NCBI GenBank assembly: GCA_017505525.1
Contig: JAFVPB010000016.1
Coordinates: forward strand, 1-44,791
Direction: 5' to 3'
From: Clostridia bacterium
GTDB lineage: Bacteria > Bacillota > Clostridia > UMGS1883
DNA length: 44,791 nt
The position numbers and the translations under genes are program-made. Numbering within the stretch: the stretch's first letter is position 1; each line of letters opens with the position of its first letter. This document shows positions 343-15,659 of this stretch, piece by piece. The notes under the pieces were generated by a model, which was given only the letters and a program-made list of their open reading frames with translations, was not told the DNA's origin and ran no database searches.

Positions 343-2427
343 TTATAATATTGAAAAATGCACCACAATTGCCGCAAACACAATTGACACCATTGAAAGA
401 AGCTTTATAAGAATATTGATTGATGGCCCTGCAGTATCTTTAAATGGGTCGCCCACAGTATCGCCGACTACTGCCGCTTTGTGATTTTCCGAGCCTTTTC
501 CTCCATAAGCTCCACCTTCGATATATTTCTTGGCATTATCCCATGCTCCGCCTGAGTTCGACATAAATACAGCCATAAGAAATCCGGATGCCGTTGCCCC
601 CGCAAGCATTCCCACAACGCCTGTGCATCCAAGCACAATTCCAACAATAACAGGAACTATTACCGCAACAATTGTGGGAAGCACCATCTCGCCAAGGCTT
701 GCTTTTGTGCAAAGGTCAATACAGCTTTCATAGTCTGCATCTGCCTCTCCTTCCATAAGCCCCTTAATTTCTTTAAACTGACGACGAACCTCTTTAACAA
801 CGCTCTGTGCCGCACGGCCTACAGAGTTCATCGTAAGCGCCGCAAACACAAAAGGAAGGCATGCGCCTATGAAAAGTCCAACAAGAACTGTGGGATTAGT
901 TATATTAAGATTTGAAATCTTCTCCGCTCCGCCATCAATAGTTTTTATTTTGTCTATATATGAAGCCATAAGAGCAAGAGCCGTAAGCGCTGCTGAACCA
1001 ATTGCAAAGCCTTTGCCTGTAGCCGCTGTTGTATTACCAAGGGAATCAAGTGCATCTGTACGCTCTCTCACTTTTTCATCAAGACCTGCCATCTGCGCTA
1101 TGCCGCCCGCATTATCTGCAACAGGGCCGTAGGCATCAGTAGCAAGGGTTATTCCCAAAGTTGCAAGCATGCCAACAGCTGCAAGTGCCACTCCATAAAG
1201 TCCCATAGATGCACTTTGTGCACCGCCTGAAACAAAATATGCTACAAGCACACATACTGCTACAATTACTATCGGAATAAGCGTTGAAAGCATTCCTACT
1301 GATATACCGCTTATTATAATTGTAGCCGTTCCTGTTTCCGAGGTTTCGGCAAGTTTTTTTGTTGGTTTATAGCTGTCTGATGTGAAATACTCAGTTGCCT
1401 GACCAATCAGCACACCTGATATAAGCCCTGCAAGAATAGCAAAATAAACGGTCCAGTTGTCTTTACCAAGTATGTAATATACAATTGGAAACGCCACAAT
1501 TGCAATAACTATTGCAGAAAAATTTGTACCACGTGAAAGTGCACTTAAAAGCTGTTTCTGGCTTGCACCTTCTGTTGTTCTTACAAAGAATGTTCCAAGT
1601 ATTGAGCATATAACGCCCACTGCCGCAAGAAGCATTGGGAGCGCCATAGCCTCCAAGCTGTGAAATGCCGCAACGCCAAGGGCACTTGCAGAAATTATCG
1701 AGCCTACATAAGATTCATAAAGGTCGGCTCCCATGCCTGCCACGTCGCCCACGTTATCGCCAACATTATCTGCTATAACTGCAGGATTTCGCGGGTCATC
1801 CTCAGGAATGCCGGCTTCAACCTTACCCACAAGGTCGGCACCAACATCGGCAGCTTTTGTGAATATGCCACCACCAACTCTGGCAAATAAAGCCATGGAA
1901 GAAGCACCCATACCAAAAGTGAGCATCGCACTTGTAATAGCCTCGTTTGAAAGATTAAATACAAATTTTAAAAGCAAAAGCCACACTGAAATATCTAAAA
2001 GGCCAAGACCTACCACAGTAAATCCCATAACGCTTCCCGATGAAAAAGCAACGCGAAGTCCTCTGTTAAGTCCCTCCTGGCAGGCATTTGCCGTTCTTGC
2101 ATTGGAAAGTGTTGCTATTTTCATTCCCACAAATCCCGAAAGCGCTGAAAAAAAGCCTCCCGTAATAAATGCAAAAGGAACATACGGCGTAAGGTAGCCT
2201 AAAAGTGCCATTATTTCTAAGATTACAAACATAACACCAAAAAACACCGATACAATTTTATACTGGCGTTTAAGATACGCCCCCGCACCACGCCTGATTG
2301 AAGAAGATATTTTTTTCATCAGGTCGTTTCCCTCGGGAAAGCTAACTACTCTGCGTGCCGTAACAAATGCAAATATCAAAGCAAGCAAAGAACACGCAAA
2401 CGTTAAACCTACAAGTAACCTGTCCAT
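343..2427 (-). CDS. hppA: K+-dependent membrane-bound pyrophosphatase (Na+ and/or H+ pump)
   Basis: Integral membrane pyrophosphatase that couples PPi hydrolysis to ion export across the cytoplasmic membrane. The protein is about 694 residues and strongly hydrophobic, the usual size for the family (about 16 membrane segments). The substrate-binding signature is clear: [13 protein letters not shown], followed by the acidic [11 protein letters not shown] motif. A second acidic motif, [17 protein letters not shown], lies further on, and the C-terminal [15 protein letters not shown] is present. The GNTTAA motif has Ala where K+-independent enzymes have Lys (GNTTKA), so this belongs to the K+-dependent group, which includes the Na+ pumps. 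The pumped ion cannot be told from motifs alone. The ATG at 2427 is preferred over an upstream in-frame GTG because AGGAG lies 8 nt before it. A promoter and a terminator frame it as a single-gene unit. Confidence 0.96.
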
Positions 2428-11769: not shown

Positions 11770-14292
11770 TTATTCCGAGTATTTTTTTATTAATTCTTCA
11801 ATTTCCTTTTCGCTTTCCTCTATTTCCTTGATAAAACTCGATGCGGGAATCCTCTGCGCGCCATCGCCAAGGATAATCAGCTGCTCAAGTCCGTCGCTTG
11901 TTGCAACGCGCACTCTGTGATTTTTGCTGAGCTGATGAGTGGTTTTTTCAATATAAGCATCAGCAGTTTCCGCTTCCTTTGTAAATACCACAGTAATGTT
12001 TTCAACCTTTTCCACTTCACCGTGATTTCCCTTTACCTTGTAGGCATCGAAAACAAGGATAATTTCATAAGGTCGAAGAACTTTATAAGCACACACTTTT
12101 TCCGTAAGCATAGCGCGGGCATCCTCTAAGCTGTCTTTTGCAATATCCTTAAGTTTATCCCACGCAAATATAATGTTGTATCCATCAATAAGCAGATACT
12201 CATCCCCCGTTTTTCTTGGCATCGGACGCCTTTTTTCGCGGGGAACTTTTTCTTTGGGAGTGTGCATAGCGTTGTAGTTTTTGTGCACTATCTTACCATA
12301 CGTTTTTTCAAAAATTCTGATTAATTCATCTTCGTCGTATACTATTGCCTTTTTTCTTATAACAGGCTTAAATTCTTCTTCCGTTTTCTCTTTGAAAATG
12401 CTTTCAAGGTGCATATATTCTTCCACCTTGTCCCACTTCACGTTAAATCCTGCTCCGTGGTCGCAGAAAACGGAATCAGCCGTATTTTCTATATCGGCAT
12501 CGCAGTCATACGCTATCTTTTCTATAACATCATCGGAGTTTAAGCATTCGCCGTAGCCCTTAAAGCTATAGCTTAATTTACCCATTCCGTGAGTATAGGA
12601 ATTCACACTCGACTGATATCCTCTTATGGCACCTACGCTGACGCTTCCCGTTATAACACACGTGTTTTCGCGTGTGTCGGGCGCATTGAGGCTTGCGCCC
12701 ATAATCTCGAGGTCTGTCATTGCTCTGCCTGTTGAATCAAGCGGAACTTCCAGCATAAAATCGTAATACGGCTCTAAAAGAATGCTTTCCGCCTTATGGA
12801 GTCCGTTTCTCACTGCCCTGTAGGTTGCCTGGCGAAAATCACCGCCCTCGGTGTGTTTAAGATGCGCTTTACCCGATTTAAGTGTGATTTTCATATCTGT
12901 TATTTCGCTTCCCGTAAGCACGCCTTTATGCATTTTTTCTTTAAGATGTGTAAGCACAAGCCTTTGCCAGTTTACTGCCAATATGTTTTCACTGCAGTCC
13001 GTTTCAAAAACAAGCCCGCTTCCCCTTTTAAGAGGTTCTAAAAGCAAATGCACCTCGGCATAATGACGAAGAGGCTCGAAATGACCAACACCCTCAACGC
13101 AGTCTTTTATTGTTTCTTTATAGATTATCCCACCCTCATCAAAGGAAACATCCATAGAAAAACGTTCAGAAATAACCTTTGTTAAAACCTCAATTTGTAT
13201 TTCGCCCATAAGCTGAACGTGTATTTCGCCTAAAGCCTCGCTATACATCACCTTCAGCTGAGAATCTTCATCTTCAAGCTTTTTCAGTTTTGCAAGTGCA
13301 ACCCTTATGTCGGTGGAGTCGTTTATCACAACTCTGTAGGTAAAAACACTTTCGAGCATCAGCGGTGGCGAATCGTTTTCAAATCCAATTCCCTCTCCCG
13401 AATACGTTTCGTTAAGCCCTGTTACGGCACAAACATCGCCCGATGAAGCAACTTGCGCGCTTTTATATTTTTCGCCCGAATAAAATCTTATTTCGTTAAT
13501 CTTTTCTCCGTTTATTATGTCTTTAGGGCGAAGCTCTCCGCCTGTAATTTTAAGATGCGTGAGCCTTGTGCCTTTATCTTCCGTTATTTTAAAAACTCTT
13601 GCGCCAAACTCTTCTGCCCCTTCATTATCGGAAGAATAATTTATAATTCCCTCAAGAATATCCTCTACTCCCTCGTTTTTCAGCGCACTGCCGAAATAAC
13701 AGGGGAAAATTTTTCTTTCGGCTATTTTCTGCCTTAAAATTCCATCATCTATTTCTTCCCCCGAAAGAAATTTTTCCATTATTTCTTCCGAGCACATTGC
13801 ACATTCCTCAATCATATTTTCGCCTTTGAAATCAACAAATCCATCACCGAATTTATCTGCAAGATTTTTTAATATTTCTTCTTTTGAGCTTTGTGCGATA
13901 TCCATTTTATTTATAAATAAAAACACGGGGATTCCTCTGCGAAAAAGAAGCTTCCACAACGTTTGAGTGTGGCTTTGAATTCCCTCAGGCGCACTTATCA
14001 CTAAAACTGCACAATCAAGAGGCCACAGTGCCCTTTCCGTTTCCGAGGAAAAGTCAACATGACCTGGGGTATCTAAAAGAGTGATTTTTGTGTTTGCCGA
14101 TTCCATAATCGCCTGCTTTGAAAAAATTGTTATTCCGCGCTCGCGCTCAATTTCATCGGTATCTAAAAAAGTATTCTGATGATCTACTCTTCCTATTTTT
14201 CTTATTTCGCCCGCACAGTAAAGCATTGCCTCGGAAAGAGTTGTTTTGCCCGAGTCAACGTGTGCAAGAATGCCTAAAACAGTTTTTTTCAT
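11770..14292 (-). CDS. TetM/EF-G-like translational GTPase fused to a Rae1/YacP-type NYN ribonuclease domain
   Basis: An 840-residue two-part protein. Residues 1 to about 650 resemble ribosomal protection proteins (TetM/TetO) and EF-G: P-loop AHVDSGKTT (10-18), RERGITI, DTPGHVDF, NKMD, then the domain IV/V region LEPYYDFMLEVP and IRGYQSSVNSYTHGMG. Residues about 698-838 match the YacP/Rae1 NYN family: LLIDGYNIIFAWDKL, LVFDAYKVKGN, FTKEAETADAYIE, VATSDGLEQ, with acidic residues D703, D749, D778 and D800. Bacillus subtilis Rae1 is a ribosome-associated A-site mRNA endonuclease, so both halves would address the ribosome; joint action is inference. The start codon overlaps the MATE stop by 4 nt, so the genes are translationally coupled. 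Tetracycline resistance is possible but not shown. Confidence 0.88.
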   Translation of the reverse strand: MKKTVLGILAHVDSGKTTLSEAMLYCAGEIRKIGRVDHQNTFLDTDEIERERGITIFSKQAIMESANTKITLLDTPGHVDFSSETERALWPLDCAVLVISAPEGIQSHTQTLWKLLFRRGIPVFLFINKMDIAQSSKEEILKNLADKFGDGFVDFKGENMIEECAMCSEEIMEKFLSGEEIDDGILRQKIAERKIFPCYFGSALKNEGVEDILEGIINYSSDNEGAEEFGARVFKITEDKGTRLTHLKITGGELRPKDIINGEKINEIRFYSGEKYKSAQVASSGDVCAVTGLNETYSGEGIGFENDSPPLMLESVFTYRVVINDSTDIRVALAKLKKLEDEDSQLKVMYSEALGEIHVQLMGEIQIEVLTKVISERFSMDVSFDEGGIIYKETIKDCVEGVGHFEPLRHYAEVHLLLEPLKRGSGLVFETDCSENILAVNWQRLVLTHLKEKMHKGVLTGSEITDMKITLKSGKAHLKHTEGGDFRQATYRAVRNGLHKAESILLEPYYDFMLEVPLDSTGRAMTDLEIMGASLNAPDTRENTCVITGSVSVGAIRGYQSSVNSYTHGMGKLSYSFKGYGECLNSDDVIEKIAYDCDADIENTADSVFCDHGAGFNVKWDKVEEYMHLESIFKEKTEEEFKPVIRKKAIVYDEDELIRIFEKTYGKIVHKNYNAMHTPKEKVPREKRRPMPRKTGDEYLLIDGYNIIFAWDKLKDIAKDSLEDARAMLTEKVCAYKVLRPYEIILVFDAYKVKGNHGEVEKVENITVVFTKEAETADAYIEKTTHQLSKNHRVRVATSDGLEQLIILGDGAQRIPASSFIKEIEESEKEIEELIKKYSE

Positions 14293-15659
14293 CTTATAAA
14301 TTCACGTTCCTTTTTTCTTTTTAAAATTAAGAACGATATAAGGTGAAGCGTTGTAGTGAACGCCCACGAAACAGGGTATGAAAGATAAAGCGCAACAAGG
14401 TCATCTATTTCCTTATACGGTGCACACATAAACACCATCAAAAGCCTTATTCCGCAAATTCCCGTTATGCTTATTACCATCGGAATAATTGATGAGCCCA
14501 TTCCGCGTATTCCTGCAACCATTGTGTCCATCAATCCGCACAAAAAATAGCAGGCACATATAAAAGTAAGCCTCTGCGCTCCAACAGCTATAACCTCAGG
14601 TACTTCGGAGTAAATTCCCACAACCTGCTTGGAAACAAGACACATTAATCCGCCCAGAATAATTCCCGTTATAGTTACAAGCACACAGCTTGCCCTTAGC
14701 CCTTTACTAATTCTTTTAAAATTACCTGCGCCGTAGTTCTGGCTGATATAAGTTACAGTAGCATGATAATACGAATTCACCGCAACATAAACAACGCCTT
14801 CAATATTTGAGGCTGCCGCATTTCCAGCCATTGCAATTTTTCCTACCGAGTTAATTGAAGACTGGATTATAACATTCGACATTGAGAAAATCGAGCTTTG
14901 AATTCCTGCAGGGATTCCAAGATATAAAAGCTCGCCAAGCTCTTTTATATGAATTTTGATTTTGTTTAAGTACAGTTTATAGCATTCATCAGTTTTTATA
15001 AGGCATCTTATTACAAGTATTGCCGATATTATCTGCGATACTGCCGTTGCTATTGCAACGCCTGCCACACTCAGTTTAAAAAATACAACTAAAATAAAAT
15101 TGAGAACAATATTTATTATACCGGCAACCGTAAGGTATTTAAGCGGTCTTTTTGTATCGCCTATGGCTCTTAATATTGCACTGCCGAAATTGTAAAGCAT
15201 TGTAGCGGGAATTCCAAGGTAGTAAATTCTCATATAAAGGGTTGAAAGGTCGATAACCTCCTCGGGCGAGCCCATTAACAAAAGAATTTTTCTTGAAGCA
15301 GCAATTCCAAGCACCGCAACAAATAAACCGCTTATTAAAGCGAGTGCTATCGAGGTGTGTACAACCTTACTCACACCATTCAAATTTTTTGCTCCATACT
15401 TTCTTGCCACCACAACGTTTGCCGCTGAGGAAAGCCCTATAAAAAGATTTATTGTAAGGTTTATCGCTGAAGACGTTGAACCAACTGCCGCAAGTGCCGT
15501 TTCTGAATCAAATCTTCCTACGATAATCATATCGGCTGCATTATAAAGCACCTGCAAAACGCTCATAATTATCATAGGAATTACAAAGCGGATAATATGC
15601 GAATAAGTTCCACCTTGCGTCATATCAACCATATGCTTTTTACTGCTCACTTGTATCAT
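14289..15659 (-). CDS. MATE-family multidrug/Na+ antiporter
   Basis: A 456-residue membrane protein with about twelve hydrophobic segments, the usual MATE form (GGTYSHIIRFVIPMIIMSVL at the start; ILRAIGDTKRPL and GIRGMGSSIIPMVIS are conserved loop motifs of the two halves). It would export drugs or metabolites in exchange for Na+ or H+. The ATG at 15659 lies directly against GAAGGAAG. The GTG three codons later (15650) has better spacing and may be the true start. The ATGA overlap with the following GTPase gene indicates one operon, and suggests a shared role in coping with antibiotics or translation stress. Confidence 0.9.
   Translation of the reverse strand: MIQVSSKKHMVDMTQGGTYSHIIRFVIPMIIMSVLQVLYNAADMIIVGRFDSETALAAVGSTSSAINLTINLFIGLSSAANVVVARKYGAKNLNGVSKVVHTSIALALISGLFVAVLGIAASRKILLLMGSPEEVIDLSTLYMRIYYLGIPATMLYNFGSAILRAIGDTKRPLKYLTVAGIINIVLNFILVVFFKLSVAGVAIATAVSQIISAILVIRCLIKTDECYKLYLNKIKIHIKELGELLYLGIPAGIQSSIFSMSNVIIQSSINSVGKIAMAGNAAASNIEGVVYVAVNSYYHATVTYISQNYGAGNFKRISKGLRASCVLVTITGIILGGLMCLVSKQVVGIYSEVPEVIAVGAQRLTFICACYFLCGLMDTMVAGIRGMGSSIIPMVISITGICGIRLLMVFMCAPYKEIDDLVALYLSYPVSWAFTTTLHLISFLILKRKKEREFIR

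What the first reader, a model, noticed from the sequence alone, without database searches (positions are those of the whole stretch)
11770..14292. TetM/EF-G-like GTPase fused to a Rae1-type ribonuclease domain
The N-terminal part has all translational GTPase motifs and TetM-like domain IV/V segments. The C-terminal part is closely similar to YacP/Rae1 (DGYN, FDAY, TADA, TSDG motifs with four acidic residues). Rae1 of Bacillus subtilis cleaves mRNA in the ribosomal A site, the same site that TetM and EF-G enter. A single protein could therefore enter the A site and cut the mRNA there, for instance at stalled or drug-bound ribosomes. It is translationally coupled to a MATE exporter, which points to antibiotic or stress response. 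Fusions of this type may exist in other Clostridia; I know of no functional study.
Basis: partly seen in the sequence, partly recalled or inferred. Interest (0 to 1): 0.75.

Follow-up and report, generated by a model that had tools for sequence, protein, structure and literature searches.

The report
Ribosome GTPase fused to mRNA-cutting enzyme
This gut bacterium has one protein joining a ribosome-binding GTPase to an mRNA-cutting enzyme; the fusion was reported in 2015, but here it proves widespread in Clostridia, keeps both active sites, and almost always replaces the usual separate cutting enzyme, so it probably cuts mRNA on stalled ribosomes rather than giving tetracycline resistance.

Summary
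One unbroken 840-aa ORF (minus strand) joins an EF-G/Tet-type translational GTPase (residues 1-628) through a low-confidence ~68-residue linker to a Rae1/YacP NYN nuclease (697-840). The architecture is not new: Atkinson 2015 (PMC4342817) reported Tet proteins with a YacP-like NYN domain in ten Clostridiales. I found no functional study in the library searched. New here: (1) among 293 Clostridia genomes, 102 have only the fusion, 87 only a standalone Rae1, one has both. In 11 fusion genomes the rlmB-sigH operon persists without the rae1 that sits there in standalone genomes. The fusion therefore looks like the clade's Rae1. (2) In 108 aligned fusions the four NYN acids (D703, D749, D778, D800) are invariant and the GTPase catalytic residues essentially so. 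(3) The GTPase, with unfused 620-665-aa relatives, forms its own clade apart from TetM/O/W, OtrA and EF-G, with distinctive near-invariant domain IV loops lacking TetM's S508-P509-V510. (4) The MATE exporter next door is not conserved, so the antibiotic inference fails. Best explanation: GTPase-assisted, ribosome-dependent mRNA cleavage at stalled ribosomes. The order of events is inferred; domain IV and NYN cannot both fill one A site.

The parts
11770..14292 (-). translational GTPase-NYN (Rae1) fusion gene, 840 aa
   Evidence: single ORF, orthologues of about 840-950 aa in >100 genomes
13636..14277 (-). G domain (residues 6-219); P-loop AHVDSGKTT, switch I RGITI, DTPGH, NKMD, SALK
   Evidence: PF00009 E 4e-52; K16, T17, T55, D74, H78, N128, K129, D131 essentially invariant in 108 fusions
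13405..13608 (-). domain II (residues 229-296)
   Evidence: PF22042 E 8e-5, below cut-off
13141..13353 (-). domain III (residues 314-384)
   Evidence: PF14492 E 9e-6, just below cut-off
12790..13128 (-). domain IV (residues 389-501)
   Evidence: PF03764 E 2e-18
13048..13086 (-). domain IV loop I, GHFEPLRHYAEVH (403-415), signature of this subfamily
   Evidence: H404, E406, P407, H410, Y411 invariant in 108 fusions; shared by short forms, absent from TetM/O/W, OtrA and EF-G
12808..12873 (-). domain IV loop III, GKAHLKHTEGGDFRQATYRAVR (474-495)
   Evidence: H480, T481, D485, F486, R492, R495 invariant in 108; replaces TetM YYSPVST and EF-G YHEVDSS
12544..12780 (-). domain V (residues 505-583)
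   Evidence: PF00679 E 2e-14
12409..12474 (-). C-terminal motif of the GTPase, SVFCDHGAGFNVKWDKVEEYMH (607-628); unfused short forms end here
   Evidence: alignment of 13 short forms and the fusions
12205..12408 (-). linker (629-696), one predicted helix at 654-665
   Evidence: AlphaFold pLDDT below 50 at 635-652 and 669-692; low conservation
11773..12204 (-). NYN_YacP/Rae1 nuclease domain (697-840), acids D703, D749, D778, D800
   Evidence: PF05991 E 7e-47; YacP 5mq8 E 3e-27; acids invariant in 108/108
14289..15659 (-). MATE-like transporter gene whose end overlaps the fusion start by 4 nt; not a conserved partner

Best explanation
This is the Rae1 of its lineage, carried on a dedicated translational GTPase. 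The GTPase half (domains I-V plus a C-terminal motif) binds the factor site of ribosomes whose A site is empty or blocked. Its domain IV tip, with loops unlike those of EF-G or TetM, reads or clears the decoding centre. After GTP hydrolysis and withdrawal of domain IV, the tethered NYN nuclease enters the A site of the same ribosome (or of a following, collided one) and cuts the mRNA there, as standalone Rae1 is reported to do; tmRNA can then release the ribosome. Shown here: the fused architecture, conservation of both active sites, one origin of the fused GTPase clade, replacement of standalone rae1, and coexistence with tmRNA. Inferred: ribosome dependence, the order of GTPase and nuclease steps, and which ribosomes are targets.
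For: NYN_YacP far above cut-off, with YacP/Rae1 (5mq8/5mq9) the only solved relatives of the C-terminal part. Four acids invariant in 108/108 fusions and GTPase catalytic residues essentially invariant. Near-perfect exclusion of fusion and standalone Rae1: 102 fusion-only, 87 standalone-only, 1 both, where independence predicts about 31 both. In 11 fusion genomes rlmB and sigH are still neighbours with no rae1, which lies between them in standalone genomes. The NYN tree separates fused from operon-borne domains, apart from a few weakly placed or long branches. Standalone Rae1 is described as an A-site, translation-dependent endoribonuclease proposed to act on stalled ribosomes (PMC6613710; PMC10100781). 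tmRNA above cut-off in 21 of 22 fusion genomes. The linker is modelled with low confidence, as expected of a flexible tether.
Against: Nothing here shows ribosome binding, GTP hydrolysis or RNA cleavage. Domain IV and a Rae1 domain would compete for the same A site, so the fusion alone does not explain how they cooperate. Unfused short GTPases exist both with and without a standalone Rae1, so the two activities can part. A same-genus genome 96% complete lacks both, so the function is dispensable. The exclusion statistic is not corrected for shared ancestry. Many fused NYN domains, the window's included, lack the C-terminal ~25 residues found in standalone Rae1. tmRNA is nearly universal, so its presence says little; the window's own draft shows no tmRNA above cut-off.
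Confidence: 0.55

Rival explanations
1. Two independent ribosomal factors that are merely joined. The NYN is housekeeping Rae1; the GTPase is a separate elongation or rescue factor; fusion gives only co-expression or ribosome localisation, without coupling between GTP hydrolysis and cleavage.
For: Short GTPases without NYN are common, in Clostridia and in Ligilactobacillus and Paenibacillus, some in genomes with no NYN at all. One genome (G229) has a standalone NYN nested in the fusion clade of the tree, with a GTPase elsewhere. Linker poorly conserved.
Against: The fused GTPase clade has one origin and has kept the fusion across about two dozen families; re-separation is rare, and neither active site has decayed in 108 sequences.
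Confidence: 0.22
2. A tetracycline or other antibiotic ribosomal protection protein that gained RNase activity as part of its resistance mechanism, as Atkinson 2015 suggested.
For: Best solved relatives are TetO/TetM; RefSeq names several members 'TetM/TetW/TetO/TetS family'; MATE gene next door in the window.
Against: Score 399 against a cut-off of 775 for the RPP model and 271 against 1100 for TetM/W. The S508-P509-V510 region of TetM loop III is replaced by KHTEGG; P509 overlaps the tetracycline site (PMC7456112). Separate clade with 100/100 support. MATE not conserved and no conserved neighbourhood. Caveat: a TetM triple mutant S508A P509A V510A is reported active (PMC4750697), so the loop sequence alone does not exclude protection.
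Confidence: 0.12
3. A ribosome or stable-RNA processing factor: the GTPase docks on ribosomes or precursors and the NYN trims rRNA or tRNA, the role once predicted for NYN domains (cited in PMC4342817).
For: Standalone rae1 sits between rlmB (rRNA methylase) and sigH, near mrnC.
Against: Reported Rae1 activity is on translated mRNA; the gene is absent from near-complete relatives, which does not fit an essential maturation step.
Confidence: 0.08

Closest known systems
Clostridial Tet proteins with a YacP-like NYN RNase domain (Atkinson 2015, PMC4342817)
   Same: Same architecture, same taxonomic group: trGTPase of the Tet type plus C-terminal NYN_YacP; RNase activity proposed but untested.
   Different: That paper counted ten species and filed them under Tet; here the group is in over 100 species, forms its own clade with unfused relatives, has distinct domain IV loops, and replaces standalone Rae1.
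Rae1/YacP of Bacillus subtilis (PDB 5mq8, 5mq9)
   Same: NYN family and the four acids D7, D53, D81, D104; presumed A-site mRNA endonuclease.
   Different: Rae1 is a ~170-aa protein encoded next to rlmB; here it is the C-terminus of a GTPase at unlinked loci, and in the window it lacks the last ~25 residues.
TetM/TetO ribosomal protection proteins
   Same: Domain order I-V, C-terminal extension after domain V, about 30% identity.
   Different: Different domain IV loops I and III; separate clade; far below RPP score cut-offs; extra nuclease.
EF-G
   Same: Five-domain translocase scaffold and GTPase motifs; the AlphaFold model matches EF-G structures best in Foldseek.
   Different: Domain IV tip lacks the RQSGGKGQYGHV and YHEVDSSEMAF loops; the genome has its own EF-G and a second EF-G-like protein.
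Unfused short relatives (e.g. Ligilactobacillus salivarius WP_172824497, 'TetM/TetW/TetO/TetS family')
   Same: Same GTPase with the same kind of loop I, loop III and C-terminal motif; L. salivarius form 49% identical to the window protein.
   Different: Stops after the C-terminal motif; no NYN.

Membership tests
Clostridial Tet-NYN fusion (Atkinson 2015) | EF-G/Tet-type GTPase and YacP-like NYN in one polypeptide | tested here: met
Clostridial Tet-NYN fusion (Atkinson 2015) | occurs in Clostridiales | tested here: met
   named orthologues Monoglobus, Agathobacter, Lachnospiraceae, Oscillospiraceae, Ruminococcus
Rae1/YacP | NYN_YacP domain over curated cut-off | tested here: met
   159.9 bits against 24.6
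Rae1/YacP | four active-site acids | tested here: met
   D703, D749, D778, D800 = Rae1 D7, D53, D81, D104; invariant in 108/108
Rae1/YacP | full-length domain including C-terminal helix | tested here: inconclusive
   window ends near Rae1 residue 142-144; about 40 of 108 fusions end near there, most of the rest extend ~15-40 residues
Rae1/YacP | gene between rlmB and sigH | tested here: not met
   fusion at unlinked loci; rlmB-sigH site has no rae1 in 11 fusion genomes
Rae1/YacP | ribosome-dependent mRNA cleavage in the A site | not testable with these tools
   needs biochemistry
Tetracycline ribosomal protection protein | score above NF012153 / NF033148 cut-offs | tested here: not met
   399 vs 775; 271 vs 1100
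Tetracycline ribosomal protection protein | loop III YYSPVST tip | tested here: not met
   AHLKHTEGG instead, in fusions and short forms
Tetracycline ribosomal protection protein | groups with TetM/O/W/OtrA in a tree | tested here: not met
   own clade 100/100; TetB(P) was not included
Tetracycline ribosomal protection protein | raises tetracycline MIC | not testable with these tools
   needs a laboratory strain assay
EF-G | score above TIGR00484 cut-off and EF-G domain IV loops | tested here: not met
   279 vs 659; loops differ
trGTPase superfamily | P-loop, switch I, DTPGH, NKxD, SAxK motifs | tested here: met

The most novel reading that the evidence does not exclude
A third functional class of EF-G-like GTPase, neither translocase nor drug ejector, whose domain IV prepares the A site and hands it to a covalently attached nuclease: a GTP-driven, single-protein mRNA-cleaving ribosome quality-control factor that has replaced standalone Rae1 across much of the Clostridia. 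Unfused short relatives may act with standalone Rae1 in trans.
Probability: 0.35. Interest if true: 0.78.

Novelty: new member of a known kind. Interest (0 to 1): 0.5.

Why it matters
How Rae1 gets into the A site, and what triggers it, is an open question. A lineage that has welded Rae1 to an A-site-type GTPase, and lost the separate copy, is a natural experiment that points to a GTPase-gated step and gives a single protein to test. It also bears on annotation: RefSeq names some members of this group 'TetM/TetW/TetO/TetS family tetracycline resistance', and the group is common in gut Lachnospiraceae and Oscillospiraceae, so resistance gene counts based on such names may be inflated.

Tried and rejected
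MATE operon as functional clue: tested and rejected. Conserved gene neighbourhood in general: none found. Plasmid or mobile spread of the fusion: only two plasmid records with most of the protein, both large replicons of Clostridia. Frameshift or two genes in the window: rejected (one search translated the wrong strand). Apparent second NYN copies in G145, G196, G228: 49-residue sub-threshold hits, not Rae1. Leroy 2017 and Condon 2018 (primary Rae1 papers) and Li 2013 (Tet(O)) are not held, so statements on Rae1 rest on papers that cite them. Comparison with clostridial TetB(P): one accession look-up (a tetracycline-resistance plasmid) found no record; I did not pursue plasmids of that species further. 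Structure prediction gave well-supported domains but no trustworthy relative placement of NYN (pTM 0.61), so no docking was attempted.

Full report
What is there. The ORF at 11770-14292 lies on the minus strand, has 840 codons, starts with ATG and has no internal stop or frameshift. Pfam places GTP_EFTU at 6-219, EFG_IV at 389-501, EFG_C at 505-583, weaker domain II and III matches, and NYN_YacP at 700-839 with E 7e-47. TetO and TetM are the nearest solved GTPases, and B. subtilis YacP (5mq8/5mq9) is the only solved relative of the C-terminal 145 residues.

It is not a new architecture. [quoted passage not shown] Further literature searches found no functional study; the primary Rae1 papers are not held, so a mention there cannot be excluded.

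Distribution. In 293 genomes of the window's class, at least 90% complete, 191 contain NYN_YacP. The class is Clostridia, since a sampled member matches Monoglobus pectinilyticus almost exactly. Sorting by open-frame length, and counting five frames broken by contig ends or frame breaks as fusions (four have the GTPase domain on the same contig; the fifth, G179, groups with fusions in the NYN tree), gives 102 genomes with only the fusion, 87 with only a standalone protein of about 160-220 aa (one with a 342-aa frame), one with both (G300) and one fragment. Independence would predict about 31 genomes with both (Fisher p about 1e-19, not corrected for shared ancestry). Six families hold both kinds in different members, so the exclusion is seen within families too. 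Apparent second copies in G145, G196 and G228 are 49-residue sub-threshold hits. All 76 full-length proteins among the best 80 are fusions, from Lachnospiraceae, Oscillospiraceae, Ruminococcus, Roseburia, Hungatella and others.

Replacement of standalone Rae1. In standalone genomes rae1 lies in a cysS-mrnC-(thyX)-rlmB-rae1-sigH cluster (gene names by resemblance to known firmicute order, not scanned one by one). In 11 fusion genomes where that cluster is recognisable, rlmB and sigH are still neighbours but no rae1 lies between them (G141, G228, G196, G145, G047, G256, G212, G270, G051, G307, G257). G300 keeps both. In other fusion genomes, the window's own included, sigH no longer has rlmB beside it, so the site cannot be judged. 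The NYN tree puts fused domains on one side and operon-borne ones on the other (89/93), with a few weakly placed or long-branched exceptions (L078, L123, L118) and one standalone NYN (G229; L038, same gene as L082) nested among fusions, which looks like a later split. The simplest reading is that the fused domain took over the standalone one's job.

Active sites. In 108 aligned fusions D703, D749, D778 and D800, equivalent to Rae1 D7, D53, D81 and D104, are invariant. The P-loop, switch I threonine, DTPGH histidine and NKxD residues are invariant or differ only in single rows. The stated refutation test 'loss of the acidic residues across homologues' is therefore answered: they are kept.

What kind of GTPase. 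Unfused relatives of 618-665 aa occur in Clostridia and, on plasmids, in Ligilactobacillus salivarius and Paenibacillus. They stop just after the motif SVFCxHGAGFxVxWxxVxxYMH (window 607-628); the fusion adds linker and NYN behind it. Fused and short forms make one clade, 100/100, apart from TetM/O/W, OtrA and EF-G; the fusions are one clade, 98/97, with the L. salivarius short form nested inside, probably by loss of NYN. Their domain IV tip is peculiar: loop I GHxEPLRHYAEV and loop III AHxKHTEGGDFRxATYRAxR, where TetM has EVPPNPFWAS and YYSPVSTPADFR and EF-G has RQSGGKGQYGHV and YHEVDSSEMAFK. TetM P509 overlaps the tetracycline site (PMC7456112), although a triple S508A P509A V510A mutant is reported active (PMC4750697). 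Scores fall far below the RPP and EF-G cut-offs. I therefore do not file it as a tetracycline protection protein. The host genome has its own EF-G and a second EF-G-like protein.

Surroundings. The overlap with the upstream MATE-like gene is shared only with L054 of the same genus, and the downstream nifJ-like gene only within the genus; 72 named loci have no MATE directly upstream or downstream and no neighbour recurs in more than four. The MATE argument for antibiotics fails. A same-genus genome, 96% complete, lacks both GTPase and NYN, so the gene is dispensable.

Mechanism. B. subtilis Rae1 is described as an A-site endoribonuclease that needs translation and is proposed to enter stalled ribosomes (PMC6613710, PMC10100781). 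EF-G-type factors place domain IV in the same site. The two cannot be there together, so I favour a sequence: GTPase binding and GTP hydrolysis, withdrawal of domain IV, then NYN entry on its tether (about 68 residues, pLDDT below 50 over most of it), or cleavage on a trailing ribosome. tmRNA, needed to free a ribosome on a cut message, is present above cut-off in 21 of 22 fusion genomes, which is compatible but weak. Every biochemical step is inference.

Verdict. The new points are its breadth, its replacement of standalone Rae1, strict conservation of both active sites, and the distinct GTPase subfamily with unfused relatives. Interest is moderate: known architecture, unknown function, now directly testable.

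Noticed in passing
L124:3986-5920 (Ligilactobacillus salivarius plasmid) and L123:5968-8769 (Agathobacter rectalis): RefSeq names these 'TetM/TetW/TetO/TetS family tetracycline resistance ribosomal protection protein' although they belong to this separate clade; probable over-calling of resistance.
   Followed up: partly
L082:3987-4508 (minus strand, genome G229) and L109:1987-3936: A standalone 173-aa NYN outside the rlmB operon that nests inside the fusion clade, in a genome whose GTPase is a separate short form: looks like a split of a former fusion or loss of its GTPase half.
   Followed up: partly
L120:1041-3755 (genome G211, single contig): The fusion gene is split into ORFs of 285 and 540 aa; frameshift, sequencing error or real split not resolved.
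   Followed up: no
G623 contig C4:58571-59173: A second, broken copy of the GTPase domain IV region with an internal TGA beside an intact fusion elsewhere in the genome.
   Followed up: no
L080 and L081 (genome G300): The one genome with both a fusion and a standalone rae1 still in its rlmB-sigH operon: a useful strain to ask whether the two differ in targets.
   Followed up: partly
G141 contig C9:531861-532230 and 542763-543073: Two extra weaker tmRNA matches about 10 kb apart in addition to the main tmRNA, possibly on mobile elements.
   Followed up: no
G000 (window's own genome): No tmRNA above the Rfam cut-off in this draft (best 25.9 bits), unlike 21 other fusion genomes; missing contig or divergent tmRNA.
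   Followed up: no
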